50,671 bases of DNA from Bacteroidetes bacterium OLB12. GTDB lineage: Bacteria; Bacteroidota; Bacteroidia; Cytophagales; Cyclobacteriaceae. The notes beneath the pieces were generated by a model, which was not told the origin of the DNA, did not search any database, and saw only the letters and a list, made by a program, of their open reading frames with translations. Made by a program: the position numbers and the translations under genes. This document shows positions 6,504 through 32,332 of this stretch, piece after piece (position 1 is the stretch's first letter; each line of letters starts with the position of its first letter). The stretch covers positions 1 to 50,671 of the forward strand of contig LNFR01000067.1 of assembly GCA_001567185.1 (NCBI GenBank), given 5' to 3'.

Positions 6504-7685
6504 CTATTTTTTAACGGGTATTTGCTCGAAATAAAAAACACCATTCTTATTGCCCACCACAAAATCTAATAGTCCGTCATTGTTCAGGTCTTCGGCTACA
6601 AATTGAATTCCAACGCCCGAGTTATCATCAATCAGGTGTTTTACCCAAACTGGTTTATTTTTCCCATCTTTCAAAAGTTCAAACCAATAAACATGGGCGG
6701 GTTCAAGGCCACCGGGTCCGTGCCCCTGATGGGAGAAAAATCGTTTGCCGGTAATCAGATCGGGCAGGCCATCACCATTCACATCCTGTAACACCAGGCT
6801 GTGCGATTCTGAAAAGGTACTATCAATGGTATGGGTGATGAACGAACTTTTTTTATTCTTATCAAATACCTGCTCGTACCACCAAACGCCATATTCATGC
6901 GCAGAGGATGAAACAACATCAGTATCGCCATCGCCATCGAAATCGTACGTTAGCATTTGGGCACACGACTCGCCCAAATCGGCTTCGTGAAATTTCCAGG
7001 GCGAGGCTTTGATGTCTTTGGGTGCTTCCCACCAGCCCCCGCGAATGATTACATCCTTGATGCCATCGTTGTTGATATCGCCCCATCCAAGCCCGTGCGA
7101 AAACATGCCAACACCTTTAGCGTTCGGTTCGCTGATGGCGGTTCGTTTCCATGTTACTTTTTTATTTTTAACAACCGCGCTGAACCAAGCCATCTGTCCG
7201 GTTTTCTCATTCCCAAACACCAGGTCTTTTTTACCATCGCCATCAATATCTACATGCATGGGCGATTCGTTTGAGGCAACGGAGTCGATGAGGTGTCTTT
7301 TCCACAACACATCTGCTGTTCCGGGGTTTTCGAACCAATAAACTTCCTTACCGGGAAAGTCGAAATTGATCAGATCTACCCATCCGTCTTCGTTCACATC
7401 CATACCAAAATTCAAAAACGAATCGCTGTAGCCTTTGGTGTAGTAGAACTTTTTGTGTTTCCAGATGTCGTGTGCTTTCCAGTCGGGGGCTTCGAACCAA
7501 CGGGCACCTGCAACAATATCTAACTTGCCATCTTTATTTACATCAAATACAGTGGCGCCTTCGGTATAGAACTCATCCCATAAGTGGTATTTTTTGAACT
7601 TTACCTGGTTGCCCTGCACCTGGCCACTTGCCAGTGAAACTATAAGCATACCTGAAATCAAATGGAGAACTATATATTTTTTCAT
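6504..7685 (-). CDS. Exported FG-GAP/VCBS repeat protein
   Basis: This 393-residue protein has an N-terminal signal peptide (MKKYIVLHLISGMLIVSLASG) and repeats with calcium-binding loops: DVNKDGKLDI, DVNEDGWVDL, DIDGDGKKDL, DINNDGIKDV, DFDGDGDTDV, DVNGDGLPDL and DLNNDGLLDF. Seven such loops indicate a seven-bladed beta-propeller like integrin alpha or VCBS proteins. The blades carry aromatic motifs (WFEAPDW, WWEAP, WWYEQ) seen in proteins neighbouring PVC-type cytochromes. It lies 91 bases downstream of the giant heme protein gene on the same strand and probably shares its transcript. The function is unknown; protein or carbohydrate binding outside the inner membrane is likely. Confidence 0.8.
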   Translation of the reverse strand: MKKYIVLHLISGMLIVSLASGQVQGNQVKFKKYHLWDEFYTEGATVFDVNKDGKLDIVAGARWFEAPDWKAHDIWKHKKFYYTKGYSDSFLNFGMDVNEDGWVDLINFDFPGKEVYWFENPGTADVLWKRHLIDSVASNESPMHVDIDGDGKKDLVFGNEKTGQMAWFSAVVKNKKVTWKRTAISEPNAKGVGMFSHGLGWGDINNDGIKDVIIRGGWWEAPKDIKASPWKFHEADLGESCAQMLTYDFDGDGDTDVVSSSAHEYGVWWYEQVFDKNKKSSFITHTIDSTFSESHSLVLQDVNGDGLPDLITGKRFFSHQGHGPGGLEPAHVYWFELLKDGKNKPVWVKHLIDDNSGVGIQFVAEDLNNDGLLDFVVGNKNGVFYFEQIPVKK

Positions 7686-7707
7686 ATCACATACCTTAAA
7701 TTTTGAA

Positions 7708-7774
7708 TTTCGGATTTCGGATTTCGGGTTTCGGATTTTGAATCTTGAATTTTAAATCTTGAATTTTGAATCTT
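7708..7774. repeat. Two adjacent short tandem arrays between two genes
   Basis: Four 7-base units of the form TTTCGGA/G occupy 7708-7735. After a short AT stretch, two 14-base units AATCTTGAATTTT(A/G) occupy 7741-7768, with a partial third copy to 7774. The arrays fill most of the 91-base space between the heme protein gene and the FG-GAP gene. They could alter spacing, mRNA structure or stability, or be slippage products with no role. Confidence 0.8.
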
Positions 7775-7776
7775 TC

Positions 7777-10700
7777 CTACCACGTAAGCAGGTAATTAAC
7801 CAATAAATTAAACTCTTGCTGACTAAGGGTTGAGCCGAAGTGATCGGGCATAATGGTGTATTTGGATGGCGTTTGCGAAACAATGTTTTTCTTTGGAATG
7901 GAGAATTCATTTCCGGTCAGATCGCCAAACACAATCACCGCGCCTTCATCTCTCCGGTAAATACCGGTTTGCACTTTACCATCTTTGGTAGTAATAGTAT
8001 AATTGCGGAAGGCCTCTGAGATGTTCCGGTTCGGATCAAGAATTTTCTCACCGAGTGCATCGGCACCGCGCTTACCAATTCCATGCAATTGCGGCCCAAT
8101 GCCCGACAATGTGTATTTGCGATGGCAGGCATTGCAGTGTGTATAGAATAATGCCGAACCAGAATCAAGTTGGGCAACAGATGTTTGTCTGAAATTTTTA
8201 AATGCGGCAAGGCGCTGATCAATCAATGCCTGCCGCTCTTTGCTTACGGGTTCAATATTCGCAGTTACCTGTTCATATTCTTTGCGTTGAGCGGCCGAAA
8301 TATTTGCCAGCATGCTTTCTTCTACCTTCGGATCTACCAGCGTTCTTGTAGTAAACGTTCCTTCCCGCACTTGCTTAAGCAAAAGATCTTTTCCGGCCGA
8401 TGAGTGTGCCAGCGCTACGGCAATACTTGCTTCAAGATCGGCTGGGGCCTTCTGTACGCGGATTAATACAGCATTTGTTTCTGCGCCCGGCCATTCGCCC
8501 AATAGGGTGGCAACCCGTTTCTTTAGGTCAGATTTAAGGGTATCGTTTGTAAGAATTTTTTCTGAAGCCTGCCACGCTGTCTGGGGAGATACCTTCATGA
8601 GCGAACGGAGTGCGGCTGATTTCAAATCAATATTATCTGATCTTTCAATAAAAGTTTCTAAAACCTGTTCGGTAGATTTTACCTGGTAATCTCCGGCAAG
8701 TTGTACAGCAAAGAATTGTTGTGAAACAACCTCATCATTTACCGGTTTAAAATCAACTGGGTATTTTTTCAACAATGCTTCTGCAATTTCCTTTCCCCAG
8801 GCTTCCAGTTGTTTGGAGTGTGTATCGCGTTGGGCAAGTCCGTCTTTAATTCCCCGAAAGGTCTGTGCATTTTGGTCAGCATCTGCGGTTACCCTGTTTT
8901 TAGCTTTTTCAATTTCAGCTTCCAGCTGGGCTGCAGGGATGTAACGTGCTATTTGCTGATAGGCAAGCCGTGTTTTGTCTTTTTGCATGTTGTTACCCTG
9001 AAGAAATTTTGAAAGGAAGGCGGCCGCTTCTGCAGAGTGTACATCCACCAGGGTGCCCGCAATAAATGCCTGATCCTGGCTGCTCCATTCTTTTGCTAAT
9101 GTCAACCTCATCAGATCATTATTGCGAAGTAAATTTCGCAACACAAGCCGGGCGGTATAAACCAGGTGTGTATCTTCTGCAGGTGTGGACTGTAAGATCT
9201 TCAGAGCCGCATCTACTGAACTCATTTCTTTATAACGTGTTAACAACTCGGTGGCGGCACGCTGCACATGCGCATCGGTGTCGTTCAGCGAATTTAAGAC
9301 GAGGGGATGAAATACATCAGGGTGCGAACCCCACTCGCGCAAAATGCGAAGGGTGTGCAAGCGAACCAGGGGCGAGGTGTGCGCGAGCGATTGTTTCATA
9401 ATATCCTGGGTTAATCCATCTAAACGATAAAGAACCCAAAGTGCGTGAATATATTTTTTCGGATTGGTGCTATCGGTGAGCAACGCTTTTAGTGGTTCTA
9501 TAGCTTCAGTTCCAATCCTGTCTGCAACCTGATCGGCCGCAGCCATGCGCGTTACAATATTGTCGAGGTCAAAGGCAGCAATTAATTCATCCAGTTTTGC
9601 TGCGGTAAGGTCGCGCACATTGTTTTGTTCACCTTTATAGGTAATGCGCCAGATCCGTCCGCGTTGTTTGTCGCGCTTGGGGTGGCCCAGGGGCACTTCG
9701 TAATGGCCGATAATAGCATTGTAAAAATCGGCTACATAGATGGCGCCATCGGGGCCCAGCTTGATGTTTACCGGCCTGAACCAGGGGTCTTCGCTCTTGA
9801 TCAGATCTACTTCTGATTTACCTACTGGCGAGGAGCCATTGTTTTGCCAGGTGTACCGGTGTACGCGCGAACTTAACGCATCGCCAATAAAAAAATTACC
9901 CTGAAACTCTTTTGGGAATTTGGTATCACCATAATATGCAATGCCACAAAGGGCGGTAGCTTCGGTTTCCAGCGGTTTCATATCAGGACCAAAGGCCATA
10001 ATTTCTGGCTTGGCAAAGTGCGGATAATCTGCACCGCGTATTAATTGATAAAGCGGTGAACTGTGGCTATCGGTAGAGTAGATGTATCCGTTTTCGTCAT
10101 ACGCTAAACCAAATGGATTTACCTGGCCATAAGTCATTTGTTCAATTCTGCTTCCATCGGGCCTGAGCCGAAACGTGTTTCCTGAAAGTAAGGTAATCGA
10201 ATCGCCATCGGCACCGGCAATTTTTGATAAGTTGGTAAAGCCATGACAACCGTGCACCCAGCCATCGTAGCCCCGAATAAAATTGCTTACCATGCCGTGC
10301 GTATCCTGAAAGCCAAACGGACCGATTAACTTTTTTGTCCATTCTGGTTTTTCATCACCACCCGTGTTGGCAAACTTATAAAGGTTAGGCACACTAAAAA
10401 CCAGGTTGCCATCTGTAAGCGGCAGTACACCCACCGGAATATTCAGCGTATCGGATACAACGGTAAACTTATCGGCCACGCCATCGTGGTCAGTGTCTTC
10501 CAGAATAGTAAGTTTATCAGTACTCTTCGATCCAACCTGTGTAGGAAAAGGGTATTCAAATGATTGGGTTACCCACATTCTTCCTTTGGCATCAAACGTC
10601 ATGTTGATGGGCTTATCAATATTTGGTTCAGAGGCAAAAAGTTGAATTTCGAAGCCGGGTGGAAGTTTAAATCCCTTTCGCTCTTCTTCGGGTGTACGCG

Positions 10701-14479: not shown

Positions 14480-14584
14480 ATCATTCACTGTCATTGCGGA
14501 CAAGCAACCAGGCTTGAGTTTAAAAGCTTAATGATTTCATTAAGATTCAGTTTCAATTAATAGTCTGGCGCGTTCCGCAATCCC
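14480..14584 (+). repeat. Dispersed hairpin repeat, copy B
   Basis: Exact 8-base inverted ends ATTGCGGA (14493-14500) and TCCGCAAT (14574-14581) bound an 89-base unit. Nested inside are the arms CTTAATGA and TCATTAAG with a two-base loop. The unit is nearly identical to copy C at 16.6 kb, in the same orientation. The form CATTGCG...CGCAATC resembles abundant intergenic repeat families of Bacteroidota. Confidence 0.85.
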
Positions 14585-14680
14585 CTCGTTGTTGCAAGTC
14601 GCCTGACCTGCAATATTAAAGTACGTTAAAATTCCATTGGAAAACCATACCGTATAGTAGTGTAGCAATTACTGTAAAAA

Positions 14681-16275: not shown

Positions 16276-16753
16276 AGCTTTGTTATTTTACAAATGCTTT
16301 CTTTGTTTAGGGCTACTTACCGATCATTCCCCGTAGTCCCTATTTCTTCGGCCAGATTCTTTGACCCGGTTGTCTTCTAAGTTGTATTTACATCCCTTCA
16401 ACGCTACCATTATTTTTATCTAAAGTTGCCTTTAATCACTAGCTAAACGAGATCAGGCTAGCAAAGTTATCAATTATGGGATTACTTGACAAATGTAAAC
16501 CACTCAGGCGCAAGTATTACCCTTGTGCCGTTATGTACTTCCATCATACCCTGTCATTGCGGACAAGCAACCAGGCTTGAGTTTAAAAGCTTAATGATTT
16601 TATTAAGATTCAGTTTCAGTTAAGAGTCTGGCGCGTTCCGCAATCCCGTTGAATGAATTCCCTACTTTAAGCTCGCCTTTGGCGAAGCCTCGTGCATGTA
16701 TTGGTGCATCGCAGTCCATGCTGCTGGTTCATTTAAAGATTTACAATAGTTGG
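16276..16753. other. 478-base gene-free stretch with hairpin repeat copy C
   Basis: No supported gene is present. The stretch should hold the promoter of the antitoxin gene at its left end, though no clean TAnnTTTG site was seen. A small stem with arms GGCGCAAG (16507-16514) and CTTGTGCC (16522-16529) lies just before repeat copy C. The final 100 bases up to the lipoprotein stop show nothing recognisable. Confidence 0.7.
16530..16650 (+). repeat. Dispersed hairpin repeat, copy C
   Basis: ATTGCGGA (16556-16563) and TCCGCAAT (16637-16644) bound an 89-base unit that matches copy B almost base for base, with a few substitutions in the centre (CTTAATGA-TT-TTATTAAG). The orientation is the same as copy B, so the two form direct repeats about 2.06 kb apart around the membrane protein and toxin-antitoxin genes. 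Confidence 0.85.
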
Positions 16754-19166: not shown

Positions 19167-20264
19167 ATGGGTTTAAAGTGTGGTATTGTAGGGCTGCCCA
19201 ACGTAGGTAAGTCCACCTTGTTTAATGCAATCTCTAACAACAAAGCCGAAGCGGCCAATTTTCCATTTTGTACAATCGAGCCCAACGTAGGGGTTATTTC
19301 TGTTCCAGACCAGCGTTTGAAAATACTGGAGGGGTTGGTTAATCCGCAAAAGGTTATCCCCACTTCATTCGAGTTTGTGGACATTGCCGGTTTGGTAAAA
19401 GGTGCCAGCAAAGGCGAGGGGCTGGGCAACCAGTTTCTGGCCAACATTCGCGAGGTAGATGCTATTGCGCATGTAGTGCGCTGTTTTGAGAACGACAATA
19501 TTATTCACGTAGCCGGTAAAGTTGACCCGGTGGGTGATAAAGGAGTTATTGATGTGGAGTTGCAATTGAAAGACCTCGAGTCTGTTGAAAAGAAGATTTC
19601 GAAAGTAGAGCGTACCGCCAAAAGTGGCGATGCCAAAGCAAAGAAGGAATTGGCTACGCTAATGGCTTATAAAGAAACTTTGCTGGCGGGTAAGAATGCC
19701 CGTAGCCTGCAGGTTGATGCCGAAGACAAAAAAGCCATTGAAGACCTGCAACTGCTAACCGATAAGCCGGTAATTTATGTAGCCAATGTGGACGAGGCTG
19801 CTGTAACTACCGGCAACAAACACGTAGAGGCTTTGAAGGCCCTGGTTAAAGAAGAGGGGGCAGAGGTGGTAGTGGTTTGCGCGGCCATTGAAGCGCAGAT
19901 AGCCGAGCTGGAGAGTGAAGAAGACCGGGCCGTATTTTTAAAGGAGTATGGATTAACAGAATCCGGACTTAACCGCCTGATCCGGGCAGCCTATAACCTG
20001 CTTAATTTGATCACTTACTTTACGGCTGGCGAGAAAGAAGTAAGGGCATGGACTATACATAAAGGCTGGAAAGCCCCGCAGGCAGCCGGAGTAATTCACA
20101 CAGACTTTGAGAAAGGGTTTATTCGGGCAGAGGTTATTAAGATACCTGATTATCAGAAATATAAGAGTGAAATTGGATGCCGTGAAGCAGGTAAATTAGC
20201 TGTTGAGGGTAAGGAATATGTGGTTGAAGATGGAGATGTTATGCACTTCCGCTTCAATGTGTAA
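19167..20264 (+). CDS. ychF: Redox-regulated Obg-family ATPase YchF
   Basis: YchF/Ola1 is a ribosome-associated P-loop ATPase of the Obg family. The 365 residues match the family length. G1 is GLPNVGKST (residues 9-17), the switch I region is [14 protein letters not shown]3 is [20 protein letters not shown], and the NVDE motif (about 211-214) replaces the NKxD guanine-specificity motif, as usual for this ATP-preferring subfamily. The C-terminal TGS domain includes [20 protein letters not shown] and ends [13 protein letters not shown]. It has its own likely promoter (19131-19138). The cas6 gene follows on the same strand 136 bases later. Confidence 0.97.
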
Positions 20265-20400
20265 TATTTTCTTTCATTTTACTTAAACTTTTCTTTTCGG
20301 TAGTTGGGTTTATTATTCTGATTTGTAGTACCTTAGCTATCCGCAATTTTTTGTAGGCGCGGTTTTGTTTAACCTATTTTTTAGCCCAAAAGCAGGAGCA

Positions 20401-21201
20401 GTGAGAGTTCGCATCGTTTTTTCTCTTAAGAACAGGGGTGGGTATGTCCCCTTTCATCACCAGTTTTTATTGGCACAAACCATTAAGGGTTTGATTATGC
20501 TGGGTAAGAATGAAAAGTATTTTTCATACACCCAATATAACTTTTCAGGTTTGAAGGGGCAGATTAAAATCTCCCGTAAGGGACTGCATTTCTATTCTTC
20601 GAAAGTTACTCTGGTCTTTTCTTCTGGTGATCAGGAATTTCTGGATTACTTTACCGGTGTGTTGTTCACTCAAAAGGAACTACTGGTAGGGGCCTTGCAA
20701 CTCATTCCGGAGTCAGTCGAAAACGAAGAGCCGGTTTCCATTACCGATTCGGTTAAGTTCTTGTGTATTTCGCCCATTGTGTTGGTACCCGCTTCGTTTA
20801 ACGATGAAAGTGGCAAGCGCTTTATCAGCCCGGAGTTGGACGAATTTTCAGACTTATTATACGATAGTACCATTGCCCGCATGGAGGCCAGTGGCAAATA
20901 CAAACCCGAGCAACTGGCAGATTTTTACAAGTTCCAGTTGGTGGCCGATAAGGAGTACATCAACCGCATTCAGGCTTCGCATAAAAAGTTTGCTCGCATC
21001 TACCCGCTTTACGATCTGGATATTAAATATGAGGTGCGGGGTTACACCTTTCCCTTTACTTTATATGCACCCCAGCCGGTGCAGCAGTTTGTTTACGAAA
21101 ATGGCCTTGGCCACTTTTCTCATAAAGGCTTTGGAATGCTGGATATCGCGCATGCCGACTCCATTCGCAATGAGGCCGACCTGGAGGTAAACTACGCTTA
21201 G
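20401..21201 (+). CDS. cas6: Orphan CRISPR-associated endoribonuclease Cas6
   Basis: Cas6 cuts CRISPR precursor RNA at repeat hairpins. From GTG 20401, preceded by AGGAG, the 266 residues begin MRVRIVFSLKN and have the adjacent His19/His20 (PFHHQF), near where Cas6 enzymes place a catalytic His. They continue with YNFSGLKGQIKISRKGLHFY, a LCISPIVLV strand, and end with the Gly-rich loop GLGHFSHKGFGMLD (235-248) diagnostic of the family. An in-frame TTG at 20365 would add 12 unlikely residues. No other cas gene or repeat array is in the window. The neighbours are housekeeping ychF and the convergent T9SS plug gene, with which it overlaps by four bases at the stops. Its current RNA target is unknown. 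Confidence 0.85.
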   Translation: MRVRIVFSLKNRGGYVPFHHQFLLAQTIKGLIMLGKNEKYFSYTQYNFSGLKGQIKISRKGLHFYSSKVTLVFSSGDQEFLDYFTGVLFTQKELLVGALQLIPESVENEEPVSITDSVKFLCISPIVLVPASFNDESGKRFISPELDEFSDLLYDSTIARMEASGKYKPEQLADFYKFQLVADKEYINRIQASHKKFARIYPLYDLDIKYEVRGYTFPFTLYAPQPVQQFVYENGLGHFSHKGFGMLDIAHADSIRNEADLEVNYA

Positions 21202-22506
21202 CGACTATTTACCGGCAGTTGGTAGTATCCTACCAACAAGTCGGCCTGGGGCCTGAAGGGCCGGTAATAGACAAAGACTTCATACAAGTTTTCTGTTTCA
21301 AAGTGGCTGCCTTCAACCTGGAAGCTATTCTGATCGGCTCCCTCTACCCAATATTGATAATCGTACCAGCCTTGTTTTAGAAATAATGTTTTTTCGTAGG
21401 TGTTTGTAGCGCGGTTGTAATCCATGCGGGTAGCAGGTGAATGATCCCAATCAGTAAGCGCACCCATCAGGTGTACCGGGCCCGCCAGGGGACTTGCGGC
21501 AAGAGTAAAAGTTACAAACACATAATCGGCCGATAGAGCCGGGTCGCGGTTATCCCGATTATCGATTACATAATTTCCATTCATATCGCGATACTGGGCA
21601 TACGCCTGGCCTTCGCGGGATTTGTCGGTAAGCACCGAAAGGTGAAATGGTCTTTTGCTTCTGTCTAAGCGGCCCGTGTTTTGACCTGGAAAATTAAGCG
21701 ATCGGAAATCTACAAACCGGAATTCGTTGCCGGCCATAAACTGGTTACTCTGGTCAAAAAACCGGTACTCCAGTTCGCGCCTGTCTTCGCGAACAAAGCT
21801 GGGTTTAATATTGCCGCGGGCATTATCCCACCGTTGATTTTGGCGCACCCAAATCTTTACCGTTTCGATCGGGTTTACCACATCCACCCGGGAATAGTTG
21901 AGTTTAAAATTAAGCTGCTGATTGCTTACACGCAGGGTGCCAAGGCCCTGGTTCTGCGCATCCATAGTAAGGGCAATATCATTTGTGTAGATCATAAATC
22001 GTTTGCTCAGCAACAAATCATTCTTATCGTTTTCGCGATAAGCCACCAATAAATAATTACCCGGAAGCTTTACTGTGGGCACTTCAAAATAATAATGCAC
22101 ATACGGAACCGAAGTATTGGTGGATAGGTCGTACTCGGTAATGGCATACTCGTTATACTCGTTCATAAATTCCAGGTCTTGCAGGCTGGATTTGGTCCAA
22201 TCGTAATTACAATGCACAAGGCGTACATAATAGTTGCTGCGCTGGCCAATCAGGTCATCGAATTCCAGCACCAACGTTTTGATTGTTTATGGGCGCTACG
22301 GCCGGTTTAAGTTTATCCTGGTTGCTGTTTAAGACCGGGTATAACTGTACGGTGCGTATTTCTTCTTCATAACTTTTATCAGTAAACAGTAGTTTTTTCT
22401 GCGAAAAGAGTGGCCCGGCAAGGCCCAGGAAAAAAAGTATTAATAAGCACCTCACGATTTTAGGAGATTTACGTTTGTACAAAGATGCAGTATAATCAAA
22501 TGGCAT
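21198..22506 (-). CDS. Type IX secretion system plug protein (DUF5103), frameshifted near the N-terminus
   Basis: DUF5103 proteins are plugs of the SprA/Sov outer-membrane T9SS translocon. The gene starts at ATG 22506 with a basic start and a signal sequence (CLLILFFLGLAGPLFSQ). It breaks at T4 22277-22280; removing one base joins PINNQ to TLVLEFDDLIGQ, the conserved LxFDDL motif. The remaining 350 residues carry LVHCNYDWTKSSLQDLEFM, the NTSVPYVHYYFEVP strand and a C-terminal immunoglobulin-like part (YEKTLFLKQGWYDYQYWVEG). The frame then runs to 21198, about 435 residues in all. It is divergent from the ECF sigma gene with only 28 bases between starts. The T9SS cargo at 11-14 kb is a plausible client of the same machinery. 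Confidence 0.82.
22470..22477 (+). promoter_or_regulatory. -7 promoter element for the ECF sigma gene, inside the plug gene
   Basis: TACGTTTG matches TAnnTTTG exactly and lies 58 bases before the sigma ATG. It sits within the 5' coding part of the divergent plug gene. No TTG lies at the expected -33 distance, so an alternative sigma factor, possibly this one, could also read it. Confidence 0.35.
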
Positions 22507-29434: not shown

Positions 29435-30865
29435 TTAAAGGCCCCAACCTGCGCGGTACTCGCGCTTTACAAACTGGTTGGCCTCATCAAAGTTGGTAAT
29501 CTTCATGTTCTTTGCATCCCACAGTAATTTCTTGCGGCCGGTATATCCTTTATCGGTGCGCAGGTTATAACTGCGAATGGCCAGGTTACCCATCAACACG
29601 GCTTCAGTAAACGGACCGGCAAATTCAAAGGGTGAGCTCAATTGCATTTTGCCATAACCGGCAATGCAGGCATCTACCCATTGTGTGTAATGTCCGGCTT
29701 CCTGGCCTTGTACCCGGGGCAGGGTAGGCGTGGGAAACTTCGTGTCTTTCATGCGGGCTGTTGGCAACAATACCGGCATGCGCTCGTAGTTGGCCATCAG
29801 TTTACCTTTAGTGCCCTCAAAGATGTATCCATTGCCTCCGCCATCACCTAATTTTTCATCGGGCAATAATTCGTCAGGGCGTTTCGGCAACAAGCCGCCA
29901 TCCATCCAGGTGAAGTTGATGTTACCTTTTCCATCGGTGCGCGGAAACTTCAAATGAATAATTGAAGAGGAGGGACAGCTATCGGGGTAATCAGCAACTT
30001 TAAAGAAGTCGGCCCAGGCTGTCGTAGCGCTGCATTCTACTTCCGAAGGATAATCAATAGGAAGAATGCGGAATGCGGCATCCATAATGTGGCAACCCAT
30101 ATCGCCCAATGCACCTGTACCAAAATTCCACCAGCCACGCCAGTTAAACGGATGGTATGCAGGGTTGTACTCTACCTCTTTTACAGGACCTAACCACAAA
30201 TCCCAATCTAACTCTTTAGGCACTTCGTGTTTGCCGGTAGGTGTGGCAATTCCTTGCGGCCACACCGGGCGGTTGGTCCAGCAGTGCACAGTATGAACAT
30301 CACCAATCAAACCGGCATCCACCCATTCTTTGGCTACGCGCACATAATCTGCGGAAGCATATTGATTACCCATTTGGGTAACAACTTTATATTTCTTTGC
30401 TGCTTCTGTTAAAGCACGGGCTTCAAAGATGTTATGTGTAAGAGGCTTTTGCACATACACATGTTTGCCGCGTTGCATGGCGGCCATGGTAGCCACTGCG
30501 TGGGTATGGTCGGCTGTGGATACAGAAACCGCATCGATGTTTTTTGCTTCTTTATCCAACATAACGCGAAAGTCTTTGTAATACTTTGCGTTTGGAAAAT
30601 TCTTTCTTGATTCTACGGTCTGGCGTTCGTCCACATCGCAGAGGAAAGAAATTTTTGCTTTGGGATTACCTTTTGTTTTTCCATCAATACTTCCGGCAAA
30701 ACCGGTAAGATCGCTGGTACCTTTGCCACCCACACCAATGCCAGCAATGTAAAGCGTATCGCTTGGCGCGATGTAGCCGGGGCCGCCCAACACAAAGCGG
30801 GGAACAATGGAAACTGCTGCAGCACCTAAGGCTGCCTTTTTAACAAAATTTCTGCGAGAGATCAT
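29435..30865 (-). CDS. Gfo/Idh/MocA oxidoreductase A, Tat-exported
   Basis: This 476-residue NAD(P)-dependent oxidoreductase starts with a twin-arginine signal (MISRRNFVKKAALGAAAVS) that would export it folded, with its cofactor, to the periplasm. The Rossmann part has YIAGIGVGGKGTSDLTGF and a LCDVDERQT strand end. The family EKP motif appears as VYVQKPLTHN: the Lys is kept and Glu is replaced by Gln. The C-terminal part has FNWRGWWNFGTGALGDMGCH and TQWVDACIAGYGKM. Sugar or cyclitol oxidation is the family role; the substrate is unknown. It is the last gene of a four-gene minus-strand run with 34-50-base gaps and is a close paralogue of the gene before it. Confidence 0.9.
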   Translation of the reverse strand: MISRRNFVKKAALGAAAVSIVPRFVLGGPGYIAPSDTLYIAGIGVGGKGTSDLTGFAGSIDGKTKGNPKAKISFLCDVDERQTVESRKNFPNAKYYKDFRVMLDKEAKNIDAVSVSTADHTHAVATMAAMQRGKHVYVQKPLTHNIFEARALTEAAKKYKVVTQMGNQYASADYVRVAKEWVDAGLIGDVHTVHCWTNRPVWPQGIATPTGKHEVPKELDWDLWLGPVKEVEYNPAYHPFNWRGWWNFGTGALGDMGCHIMDAAFRILPIDYPSEVECSATTAWADFFKVADYPDSCPSSSIIHLKFPRTDGKGNINFTWMDGGLLPKRPDELLPDEKLGDGGGNGYIFEGTKGKLMANYERMPVLLPTARMKDTKFPTPTLPRVQGQEAGHYTQWVDACIAGYGKMQLSSPFEFAGPFTEAVLMGNLAIRSYNLRTDKGYTGRKKLLWDAKNMKITNFDEANQFVKREYRAGWGL

Positions 30866-30901
30866 ACGTTAGAAAAGTGGTTTATATGTGTAGTAAAAAA
30901 A

Positions 30902-32332
30902 TCAAAGACTGTAGCCAGCGCGGTAGGTACGTTTTACAAACTGGTTGGCTTCATCGAAGTTGGTGATTTTCATATTCGGACCATCCCACAACAACTTGAT
31001 GTAGCGGCCCGGGTAATCAAACTGATCGGGGCGACCGTTAGGACGTGGTTTACGGATGTCGAAGCTTCTCAGAGCCAGGTTGCCCATCAGAATACTCTCT
31101 GTTAATGGGCCGGCAATTTCAAAATCAGAACTCAATTCCATTTTGCCATATCCCGCAAGGCAGGCATCTACCCATTGCACGTAGTGGCCCGGTTCTGAGC
31201 CTCCGGTAACCCTGGCGTATTTCTGCGGCACATTTACTTCTTTGGTTCGTGTGGTAGGCAACAATTGTGGATTAATACCATACGTGCCACACATCATTTT
31301 ACCTTTCGTGCCAATCAGCAGCACTCCATTACCCCCATCGCCAAACACTTCGTTGGGGCCTAATTCATCGGGGCGTTCGGGTTGAATGCCGCCATCCATC
31401 CAATGAAATTTGATATCGGGTTTGCCATTTGATCCGGCAAATTTTAACGTGATATGTGAAGAAGGCGGACAGCTTTCAGGAAAGTAGCCGCGCTTAAATT
31501 CATCTACATACACACTGCCTACGCTGCATTCCACTTCCGTGGGATAGCCCAGGCCTAAGGTTCGGAAGGCAGGTTCAATAATGTGACAGGCCATGTCGCC
31601 CAGCGCCCCGGTTCCGTAATCCCACCAGCCGCGCCAGTTGAAAGGAACAAGCTTATCTACATAATCTTTATAAGGAGCCGTGCCTAACCACAAATCCCAA
31701 TCGAGTTCTTTCGGAACTTCTGCTTTATTAGCCGACCACGGAATTCCCTGGGGCCACACGGGCCGGTTGGTCCAGCAATACACGGTGTGCACATCGCCAA
31801 TTAATCCGGCATCAAACCATTCGCGCATTTGCCTTACACCATCGCCCGATGCACCCTGGTTGCCCATCTGGGTTACTACTTTATATTTCTTGGCGGCTTC
31901 GGTAAGCATGCGTGCTTCGTAGATGTCGTGTGTCAAAGGCTTTTGCACATACACATGTTTACCTAATTTCATGGCAGCCATGGCCTGCACCGCGTGCATG
32001 TGATCGGGTGTAGAAACGGTTACGGCATCAATGTTTTTATGTTCCGCTTCCAGCATCTTCCGGTAATCCTTGAAATATTTGGCCTTCGGAAATCGCTTTA
32101 CTGAAGCTGCAGCCCTTTTGTCATCAACATCGCACAAAATAGAAACGGTTGCTTTCGGGTTTTTAGTTATGCTGGTAAGGTCGCTCTCACCTTTGCCGCC
32201 AACCCCAATGCCGGCAATGTACAATTTATCACTGGGGGCAATGTAGCCTTTGCCCAACACATGACGGGGAACAATGGTTACCGCGGCTGCGGCCATACCT
32301 GCGGTTTTAATAAAAGATCTACGGGTAGTCAT
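30902..32332 (-). CDS. Gfo/Idh/MocA oxidoreductase B, Tat-exported paralogue
   Basis: This 476-residue protein has the same length and layout as its neighbour, with a twin-arginine signal (TTRRSFIKTAGMAAAAVT). The dinucleotide loop is YIAGIGVGGKGESDLTSI and the EKP-position motif is VYVQKPLTHD. FNWRGWWDYGTGALGDMACH, FHWMDGGIQPERPDELGP and VQWVDACLAGYGKMELS are nearly shared with copy A, so the pair arose by tandem duplication and diverged. It follows the small subunit gene by 34 bases. Both enzymes probably act in the periplasm on products of the upstream GMC oxidoreductase, which is inference from operon order. Confidence 0.9.
   Translation of the reverse strand: MTTRRSFIKTAGMAAAAVTIVPRHVLGKGYIAPSDKLYIAGIGVGGKGESDLTSITKNPKATVSILCDVDDKRAAASVKRFPKAKYFKDYRKMLEAEHKNIDAVTVSTPDHMHAVQAMAAMKLGKHVYVQKPLTHDIYEARMLTEAAKKYKVVTQMGNQGASGDGVRQMREWFDAGLIGDVHTVYCWTNRPVWPQGIPWSANKAEVPKELDWDLWLGTAPYKDYVDKLVPFNWRGWWDYGTGALGDMACHIIEPAFRTLGLGYPTEVECSVGSVYVDEFKRGYFPESCPPSSHITLKFAGSNGKPDIKFHWMDGGIQPERPDELGPNEVFGDGGNGVLLIGTKGKMMCGTYGINPQLLPTTRTKEVNVPQKYARVTGGSEPGHYVQWVDACLAGYGKMELSSDFEIAGPLTESILMGNLALRSFDIRKPRPNGRPDQFDYPGRYIKLLWDGPNMKITNFDEANQFVKRTYRAGYSL

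What the first reader, a model, noticed from the sequence alone, without database searches (positions are those of the whole stretch)
20401..21201. Orphan Cas6 with no array and no other cas genes, between housekeeping genes
The product has the N-terminal HH pair and the C-terminal GLGHFSHKGFGMLD loop of Cas6, with an intact frame and a plausible GTG start behind AGGAG. It lies between ychF and the T9SS plug gene, not in a CRISPR locus, and I see no repeat array in 50 kb. It may process RNA in trans for a distant array, or have been taken over for host RNA processing. A stable position next to ychF across species would argue for a role outside immunity.
Basis: partly seen in the sequence, partly recalled or inferred. 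Interest (0 to 1): 0.7.

Follow-up and report, generated by a model that had tools for sequence, protein, structure and literature searches.

The report
Ancient Cas6 living without CRISPR
A gene related to the CRISPR RNA-cutting enzyme Cas6 appears to have been inherited for a very long time as an ordinary chromosomal gene in a large group of bacteria, often in genomes where no CRISPR genes were found, and it lacks the residue that usually does the cutting, so it probably has a different job in the cell.

Summary
Window 20401-21201(+) is an intact Cas6-family gene (TIGR01877 62.3 bits, cut-off 58.65; PF01881 73.5) between ychF and a T9SS plug gene, with no array in the window. It belongs to a distinct lineage: 115 of 194 genomes drawn from the order have it, and members outside the order join it in one clade (100/100) apart from 23 CRISPR-type Cas6. 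ychF lies directly upstream in 63 of 95 testable loci, 4 of them outside the order. Constraint is strong (dN/dS 0.011-0.031 where dS was finite). 47 of 115 carriers have neither a Cas1 nor a type III RAMP hit; the window's genome also lacks Cas7 and cut-off-level Cas3. The canonical catalytic-His column is filled in 0 of 91 members versus 23 of 25 CRISPR-type Cas6. Best reading: a vertically inherited Cas6 acting on a host RNA. Complications: carriers have Cas1 and RAMPs more often than non-carriers, and in 11 of 19 carriers with both it is the only detectable Cas6, so it may also serve CRISPR in trans. The RNA target is unknown.

The parts
20401..21201 (+). orphan Cas6-lineage gene, GTG start, 266 codons plus TAG stop
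   Evidence: conserved start (Arg2 77 of 77)
20458..20460 (+). codon of His20, nearly invariant in the lineage (89 of 91), 2 of 25 in the CRISPR-type Cas6 of Bacteroidota compared here, but also seen at the aligned place in archaeal Cas6 3pkm and 5yi6; possible active-site or structural residue
   Evidence: function is inference
20464..20541 (+). region Phe22-Tyr47, shorter than in most CRISPR-type Cas6; the missing stretch holds their canonical catalytic His
   Evidence: median 26 and 22 versus 38 and 38 residues between the Q21 and F48 columns; ranges overlap
21103..21144 (+). glycine-rich loop GLGHFSHKGFGMLD, residues 235-248
   Evidence: Gly235, 237, 243, 245 in 91 of 91
20318..20344 (+). 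conserved promoter-like block between ychF and cas6 (CTGATTTGTAGTACCTTAGCTATCCGC)
   Evidence: alignment of 21 sequences; clearest in the nearest relatives; resemblance to a Bacteroidota promoter is recalled, not tested
20394..20398 (+). AGGAG, possible ribosome-binding site (2 bases before GTG)
19167..20264 (+). ychF, conserved upstream neighbour (name from the finding; no family search was run on it)
21198..22274 (-). T9SS plug protein gene (PF17116), convergent neighbour, stop codons overlapping; its 5' part may be longer

Best explanation
This is a Cas6 lineage that became an ordinary, vertically inherited chromosomal gene, next to ychF, in an ancestor of this order and at least one other order of its class. 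It keeps Cas6 sequence signatures and the glycine-rich loop but lacks the canonical catalytic His, and most members lack the stretch that holds it. Most likely it binds, and perhaps slowly cuts, a specific host RNA hairpin or junction, as a chaperone-like RNA-processing factor that does not depend on a CRISPR system. Shown: lineage, synteny, purifying selection, absence of the canonical His, retention in genomes without Cas1 or RAMP hits. Inferred: RNA binding, host RNA as target, any remaining nuclease activity.
For: 115 of 194 order genomes carry it, with a clear score gap to the other Cas6 hits (6e-43 versus 2e-10). 15 class genomes outside the order carry it, in four families; 14 of these with 35 order members form one side of a branch at 100/100 against 23 CRISPR-type Cas6. 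ychF directly upstream in 63 of 95 testable loci, including L130, L131, L135, L136 outside the order. dN/dS 0.011, 0.011, 0.011 and 0.031 for the 4 of 13 relatives with finite dS. 47 of 115 carriers have neither Cas1 nor RAMP hits; 10 of 10 carriers tested, including the window's, have no RAMP and no Cas7 (nine were chosen for lacking Cas1). No array in 100 carrier loci, 1.14 Mb, apart from a low-complexity repeat in L037. No match in 50,697 phage records, no relative confirmed in viral contigs. Canonical His column: 0 of 91 versus 23 of 25.
Against: Carriers have Cas1 hits more often than non-carriers (65 of 115 versus 16 of 79, Fisher p 4e-7) and RAMPs more often (23 of 115 versus 5 of 79, p 0.007); lineage is not corrected for. 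In 11 of 19 carriers with strong Cas1 and RAMPs it is the only Cas6 found. One carrier outside the 100 loci (G037, L164) has an array and cas1 about 9 kb away. No host RNA target; no conserved RNA structure in 13 leaders; the nine neighbour proteins sampled give no clear functional lead. Most of the class and some families of the order lack the gene, so it is dispensable in those lineages. No structure prediction was possible.
Confidence: 0.6

Rival explanations
1. A normal trans-acting Cas6: it processes pre-crRNA for class 1 (mainly type III) CRISPR systems that come and go, and is kept because those systems lack their own cas6.
For: 11 of 19 carriers with strong Cas1 and RAMPs have no other Cas6 by the A5 profile, as have 2 of 17 carriers with strong Cas1 and no RAMP. 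Carriers have RAMPs and Cas1 more often than non-carriers. G037 has an array whose repeat ends in ATTGCGAC, like the 8-nt handle recalled for Cas6-cut repeats.
Against: 92 of 115 carriers have no RAMP and 47 have neither Cas1 nor RAMP, yet the gene is under very strong constraint in the window's group. The canonical His is absent. 8 of those 19 carriers have a second Cas6. 3 of 5 non-carriers with RAMPs (G068, G123, G129) show no Cas6 match, a weak single-sequence query (they were not searched with A5), so type III without a detected cas6 is not confined to carriers.
Confidence: 0.22
2. A component of a non-CRISPR defence or stress-response pathway that recognises foreign or damaged RNA.
For: Cas6 relationship only; the PADLOC hits are all Cas6 models.
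Against: No defence family among the nine neighbour proteins sampled, although no defence-library search was run on neighbours; stable position and slow evolution are unlike most defence genes (recalled); no match in phages or viral contigs.
Confidence: 0.08
3. Sub-choice within the best explanation: a purely structural, non-catalytic RNA-binding protein, like the archaeal Cas6 paralogues 3ufc and PH0350 (3qjj), and not a nuclease with another active site.
For: 3ufc is the best solved-structure hit of the profile and PH0350 close behind (E 1.1e-14 and 1.4e-13; that they are non-catalytic is recalled). The canonical His of CRISPR-type Cas6 is absent, and the Leu-His stretch of PfuCas6 (3pkm) falls in an insertion relative to this lineage. 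A His at the His20 place is also present in PfuCas6 and 5yi6, and it is not in the PfuCas6 triad Tyr31-His46-Lys52, so His20 may be structural.
Against: His20, Lys52 and Arg199 are conserved in 89, 91 and 91 of 91. Sso1437 is active without the histidine (abstract and passages).
Confidence: 0.5

Closest known systems
CRISPR-type Cas6 / Cas6b of class 1 CRISPR-Cas (TIGR01877, PF01881, PADLOC PDLC01782)
   Same: Same family by curated profile score; glycine-rich loop; Ser124, Pro125 and Phe219 shared with 24-25 of 25 CRISPR-type Cas6
   Different: No cas neighbours or array in the loci examined; canonical catalytic His absent; own clade; slow evolution beside ychF
Archaeal Cas6 paralogues 3ufc (that it is the Pyrococcus furiosus paralogue of Park et al. 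2012 is recalled) and PH0350 (3qjj, 3qjl, 3qjp)
   Same: Best or near-best profile matches among solved structures; also lack the canonical active site (recalled)
   Different: Archaeal; matched stretches cover about profile positions 41-160 and 210-250; common descent as a separate group was not tested
Sulfolobus solfataricus Cas6 Sso1437 (PMC3652601)
   Same: Cas6 without the catalytic histidine (abstract and passages)
   Different: CRISPR enzyme, dimer, lysines and an arginine implicated in catalysis; not compared with this lineage here
Cas6e (TtCas6e His26 in the first helix; passage of PMC3652601)
   Same: An active-site His in alpha1, perhaps near where His20 would lie (inference, no alignment made)
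   Different: Divergent family, part of the type I-E interference complex

Membership tests
Cas6 family (TIGR01877 / PF01881) | curated profile score over cut-off | tested here: met
   62.3 versus 58.65 bits; 73.5 versus 23 bits
Cas6 family (TIGR01877 / PF01881) | C-terminal glycine-rich loop | tested here: met
   Gly235, 237, 243, 245 in 91 of 91 lineage members
Cas6 family (TIGR01877 / PF01881) | two ferredoxin-like (RAMP) domains | not testable with these tools
   structure prediction switched off
CRISPR-processing Cas6 enzyme | canonical N-terminal catalytic His (PfuCas6 His46); known exceptions exist (Sso1437) | tested here: not met
   His column 0 of 77 and 0 of 14 in the lineage, 11 of 13 and 12 of 12 in CRISPR-type Cas6
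CRISPR-processing Cas6 enzyme | encoded in or with a cas operon and array | tested here: not met
   no array in window; Cas1, RAMP, Cas7 0 and Cas3 none over cut-off in own genome; rest of genome not scanned for arrays
CRISPR-processing Cas6 enzyme | cleaves repeat RNA leaving an 8-nt handle (recalled) | not testable with these tools
   needs the purified protein
Trans-acting Cas6 of type III systems | type III effector genes present in the same genome | tested here: not met
   own genome RAMP 0 (92.46% complete); met in 23 of 115 carriers of the order
Non-catalytic archaeal Cas6 paralogues | sequence relationship closer than to catalytic Cas6 | tested here: inconclusive
   3ufc E 1.1e-14, 5yi6 1.1e-13, PH0350 1.4e-13 versus 3pkm 1.2e-7; no tree with archaeal members made

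The most novel reading that the evidence does not exclude
A Cas6 recruited long ago as a host RNA-processing factor of Bacteroidia, with an active site that does not use the canonical His but other lineage-conserved residues (candidates His20, Lys52, Arg199), acting on a conserved cellular RNA, and from which type III CRISPR systems in the same lineage now borrow crRNA processing.
Probability: 0.25. Interest if true: 0.85.

Novelty: new variant of a known kind. Interest (0 to 1): 0.68.

Why it matters
cas genes outside CRISPR loci are usually read as debris or as spare parts of distant loci (recalled). Here a Cas6 looks like a long-lived, strongly constrained chromosomal gene across at least two orders, so its removal should reveal a cellular RNA substrate directly. 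It would be a case of a CRISPR protein serving the host's own RNA metabolism. It also warns that a Cas6 annotation (the Bernardetia member is called 'CRISPR-associated endoribonuclease Cas6' in its record) need not mean a CRISPR system.

Tried and rejected
Rejected: decayed relic (intact frame, dN/dS 0.011-0.031); mobile-element gene (no match in 50,697 phage records, 70 pattern stretches in viral contigs but none a relative, one of 72,556 plasmid records, a 602-kb Bernardetia replicon with purQ and rimM nearby); conserved RNA hairpin in the leader (consensus fold of 13 leaders gave 0 pairs). Neighbours away from ychF: nine proteins sampled (asparagine synthase, M50 peptidase, methylmalonyl-CoA mutase, sugar transferase, sigma-54 regulator, Kazal, ACP phosphodiesterase, DUF3276, and an Exo_endo_phos protein of cluster c30, found in L126, L129 and L132, which could be a nuclease). 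I took none as a lead, but the last deserves a look. PF10040 was uninformative. The three-unit 'array' in L037 is a low-complexity repeat.

Literature: nine searches listed no paper on a Cas6 of this kind; only open-licence PMC is held. Seen: passages of PMC3727216, abstract and passages of PMC3652601; all others only as listings.

Weak points. How many other orders the four outside families represent is not known. The 115 were set apart by my own cut (E at most 6e-43). Cas1 counts use E at most 0.001 and include one carrier below the Pfam cut-off (G061); 29 of the 65 Cas1-positive carriers have only a weaker Cas1 hit (E 3e-34 or worse), which may be type II (not tested). Loci are not de-duplicated by genome (L007/L137, L010/L138, L015/L139 overlap; L001 is the window) and near relatives are over-represented. 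The array finder is a simple exact-20-mer script; it saw arrays in 5 of 26 other Cas6 loci. Dropped before counts: L057 (partial) and L032 (called start truncated, 243 aa) from the alignments; four loci with too little upstream DNA from the synteny count; L069, L082, L091 (long branches) from the tree, all three being, where the lineage has 97/87; G266 was found but not fetched. The stretch holding the His is not shorter in every member: L135 and L136 (f58) keep up to 36 residues there but have no His in that column. The label CRISPR-type rests, for the 13 order proteins used, on a Cas1 hit within about 11 kb on the same contig for 10 (places compared by eye), on an array for L084 and L090, and on nothing for L082; for the 12 of L152-L163 only L156 shows an array and cas genes were not checked. 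dS above 1.5 is near saturation, so dN/dS is rough.

Full report
Observation. The gene at 20401-21201(+) is intact and is a Cas6 by curated profile. It sits between ychF and a T9SS plug gene. The window has no CRISPR array and no Rfam match at gathering score. In its own genome (3.6 Mb, 118 contigs, 92.46% complete) it is the only Cas6 match; Cas1, RAMP and Cas7 searches were negative and no Cas3 passed the cut-off. Arrays in the rest of the genome were not scanned.

Distribution. With the window protein as query, 120 of 194 genomes of the order matched. 115, the window's own included, form a compact set (38% identity or more, E at most 6e-43); the other five have only weak matches of 20-27% identity. 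With a 35-sequence profile, 34 of 296 class genomes matched; 24 are of this lineage (E at most 6e-53), 9 in the order and 15 in four families outside it; the other ten are weak (E 2e-15 or worse), of which one was examined (G321, L163). In a phylum-wide draw 50 of 296 matched; outside the class the best score was 92.8 bits. Of these outside matches 11 were fetched, and together with L163 all 12 carry the canonical His motif, so I do not count them in the lineage; the rest were not examined.

Position. ychF lies directly upstream on the same strand, 62-285 bases from the aligned start, in 63 of 95 testable loci (four of 99 had too little upstream DNA). Outside the order it does so in 4 of 13 testable loci (L130, L131, L135, L136), which points to an ancestral arrangement. 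In 32 loci it does not; the neighbour proteins sampled there give no clear lead.

Descent and constraint. A tree of 72 proteins puts all 49 members included on one side of a branch with 100/100 support against 23 CRISPR-type Cas6 (the tree of 63 rows gave 97/87). Within the order several families group together (for example f5, f16 and f19, and the window's f1 with its named relatives), while f9 is split and f4, f15 and f20 are not one group or not resolved. dN/dS is 0.011 against L031, L033 and L034 and 0.031 against L038, the 4 of 13 relatives with finite dS for this gene; dN is near that of YchF in the nearest relatives, up to about twice it in farther ones, and below that of the plug gene wherever both were measured.

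Active site. PfuCas6 uses Tyr31, His46 and Lys52 (passage in PMC3652601). In a joint alignment the His column is filled in 11 of 13 order CRISPR-type and 12 of 12 of the other CRISPR-type Cas6, and in 0 of 77 and 0 of 14 lineage members. The stretch is usually shorter (medians 26 and 22 versus 38 and 38 residues), but not in L135 and L136. His20 is present in 89 of 91 members and 2 of 25 CRISPR-type Cas6, Lys52 in 91 of 91 and 2 of 25, Arg199 in 91 of 91 and 6 of 25. A His at the His20 place also occurs in the archaeal Cas6 3pkm and 5yi6, so it is not unique to this lineage and may be structural. Cas6 proteins without the canonical histidine can still cut RNA (PMC3652601 abstract and passages), so its loss does not prove loss of activity.

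Relation to CRISPR. Of 115 carriers 65 have a Cas1 hit; of 79 non-carriers 16 have one. RAMPs are found in 23 of 115 carriers and 5 of 79 non-carriers. 47 carriers have neither. The associations run against full independence; they are not corrected for lineage. In the 47 genomes with a strong Cas1 hit (36 carriers, 11 non-carriers) a profile of CRISPR-type Cas6 and the RAMP family were searched: of 19 carriers with RAMPs, 11 have only this gene as Cas6 and 8 have another; the two non-carriers with RAMPs there have their own Cas6. Against a special link, three further non-carriers with RAMPs show no Cas6 in the weaker search. One carrier (G037) has an array of 21 or more repeats, a Cas1 and a small frame that looks like cas2 (recalled, not searched) about 9 kb from the gene, with ten frames between. 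Comparing places by eye, five carriers have Cas1 on the same contig as this gene (G003, G037, G078, G130, G144) and only G037 has it within 20 kb; for the rest the contigs differ and the distance is unknown.

Conclusion. The lineage, its position, its constraint and the absence of the canonical His are shown. That it acts on a host RNA is inference, with trans-acting crRNA processing as the main rival and possibly an additional role in some genomes. It is a Cas6 by family but does not meet the canonical active-site feature of CRISPR-processing Cas6.

Noticed in passing
window 14480-14584 and 16543-16647: Two copies (95% identical) of a 105-nt repeat between frames; the RNA of 14488-14586 folds into a strong hairpin (-29.4 kcal/mol, z -3.7). 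A pattern for it had no match in the 164 fetched loci; its copy number in the genome was not checked.
   Followed up: partly
window 29437-31822: Several direct repeat pairs of 75-87% identity with spacing about 1.47-1.49 kb, which may be a tandem gene duplication.
   Followed up: no
window 7699-7774: Short A+T-rich tandem repeat, period 7 (AATTTTG), about 10 copies.
   Followed up: no
L164:5267-6743, 6952-7245, 7875-8957: In G037 an array of 21 or more repeats stands with a Cas1 gene and a cas2-like frame; its RAMP genes lie about 4 Mb away in contig coordinates.
   Followed up: partly
L151:8001-8813 (NZ_CP147018.1): The Bernardetia copy lies on a 602-kb replicon called a plasmid, with purQ and rimM nearby, so perhaps a second chromosome-like replicon.
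   Followed up: partly
L140:9340-9672 and 11 other loci: A gene of one cluster, DUF3276 (PF11680) in the member tested, often lies one or two genes upstream of ychF.
   Followed up: no
L126, L129, L131-L134: In two families outside the order (f42, f88) a membrane protein of about 640 aa shares the neighbourhood downstream of the gene; it looks like a transglycosylase to me (recalled motif, no family search run).
   Followed up: no
L126, L129, L132: A protein cluster with an Exo_endo_phos domain (PF03372 in the member tested) lies upstream of the gene in f42 loci; possibly a nuclease.
   Followed up: no
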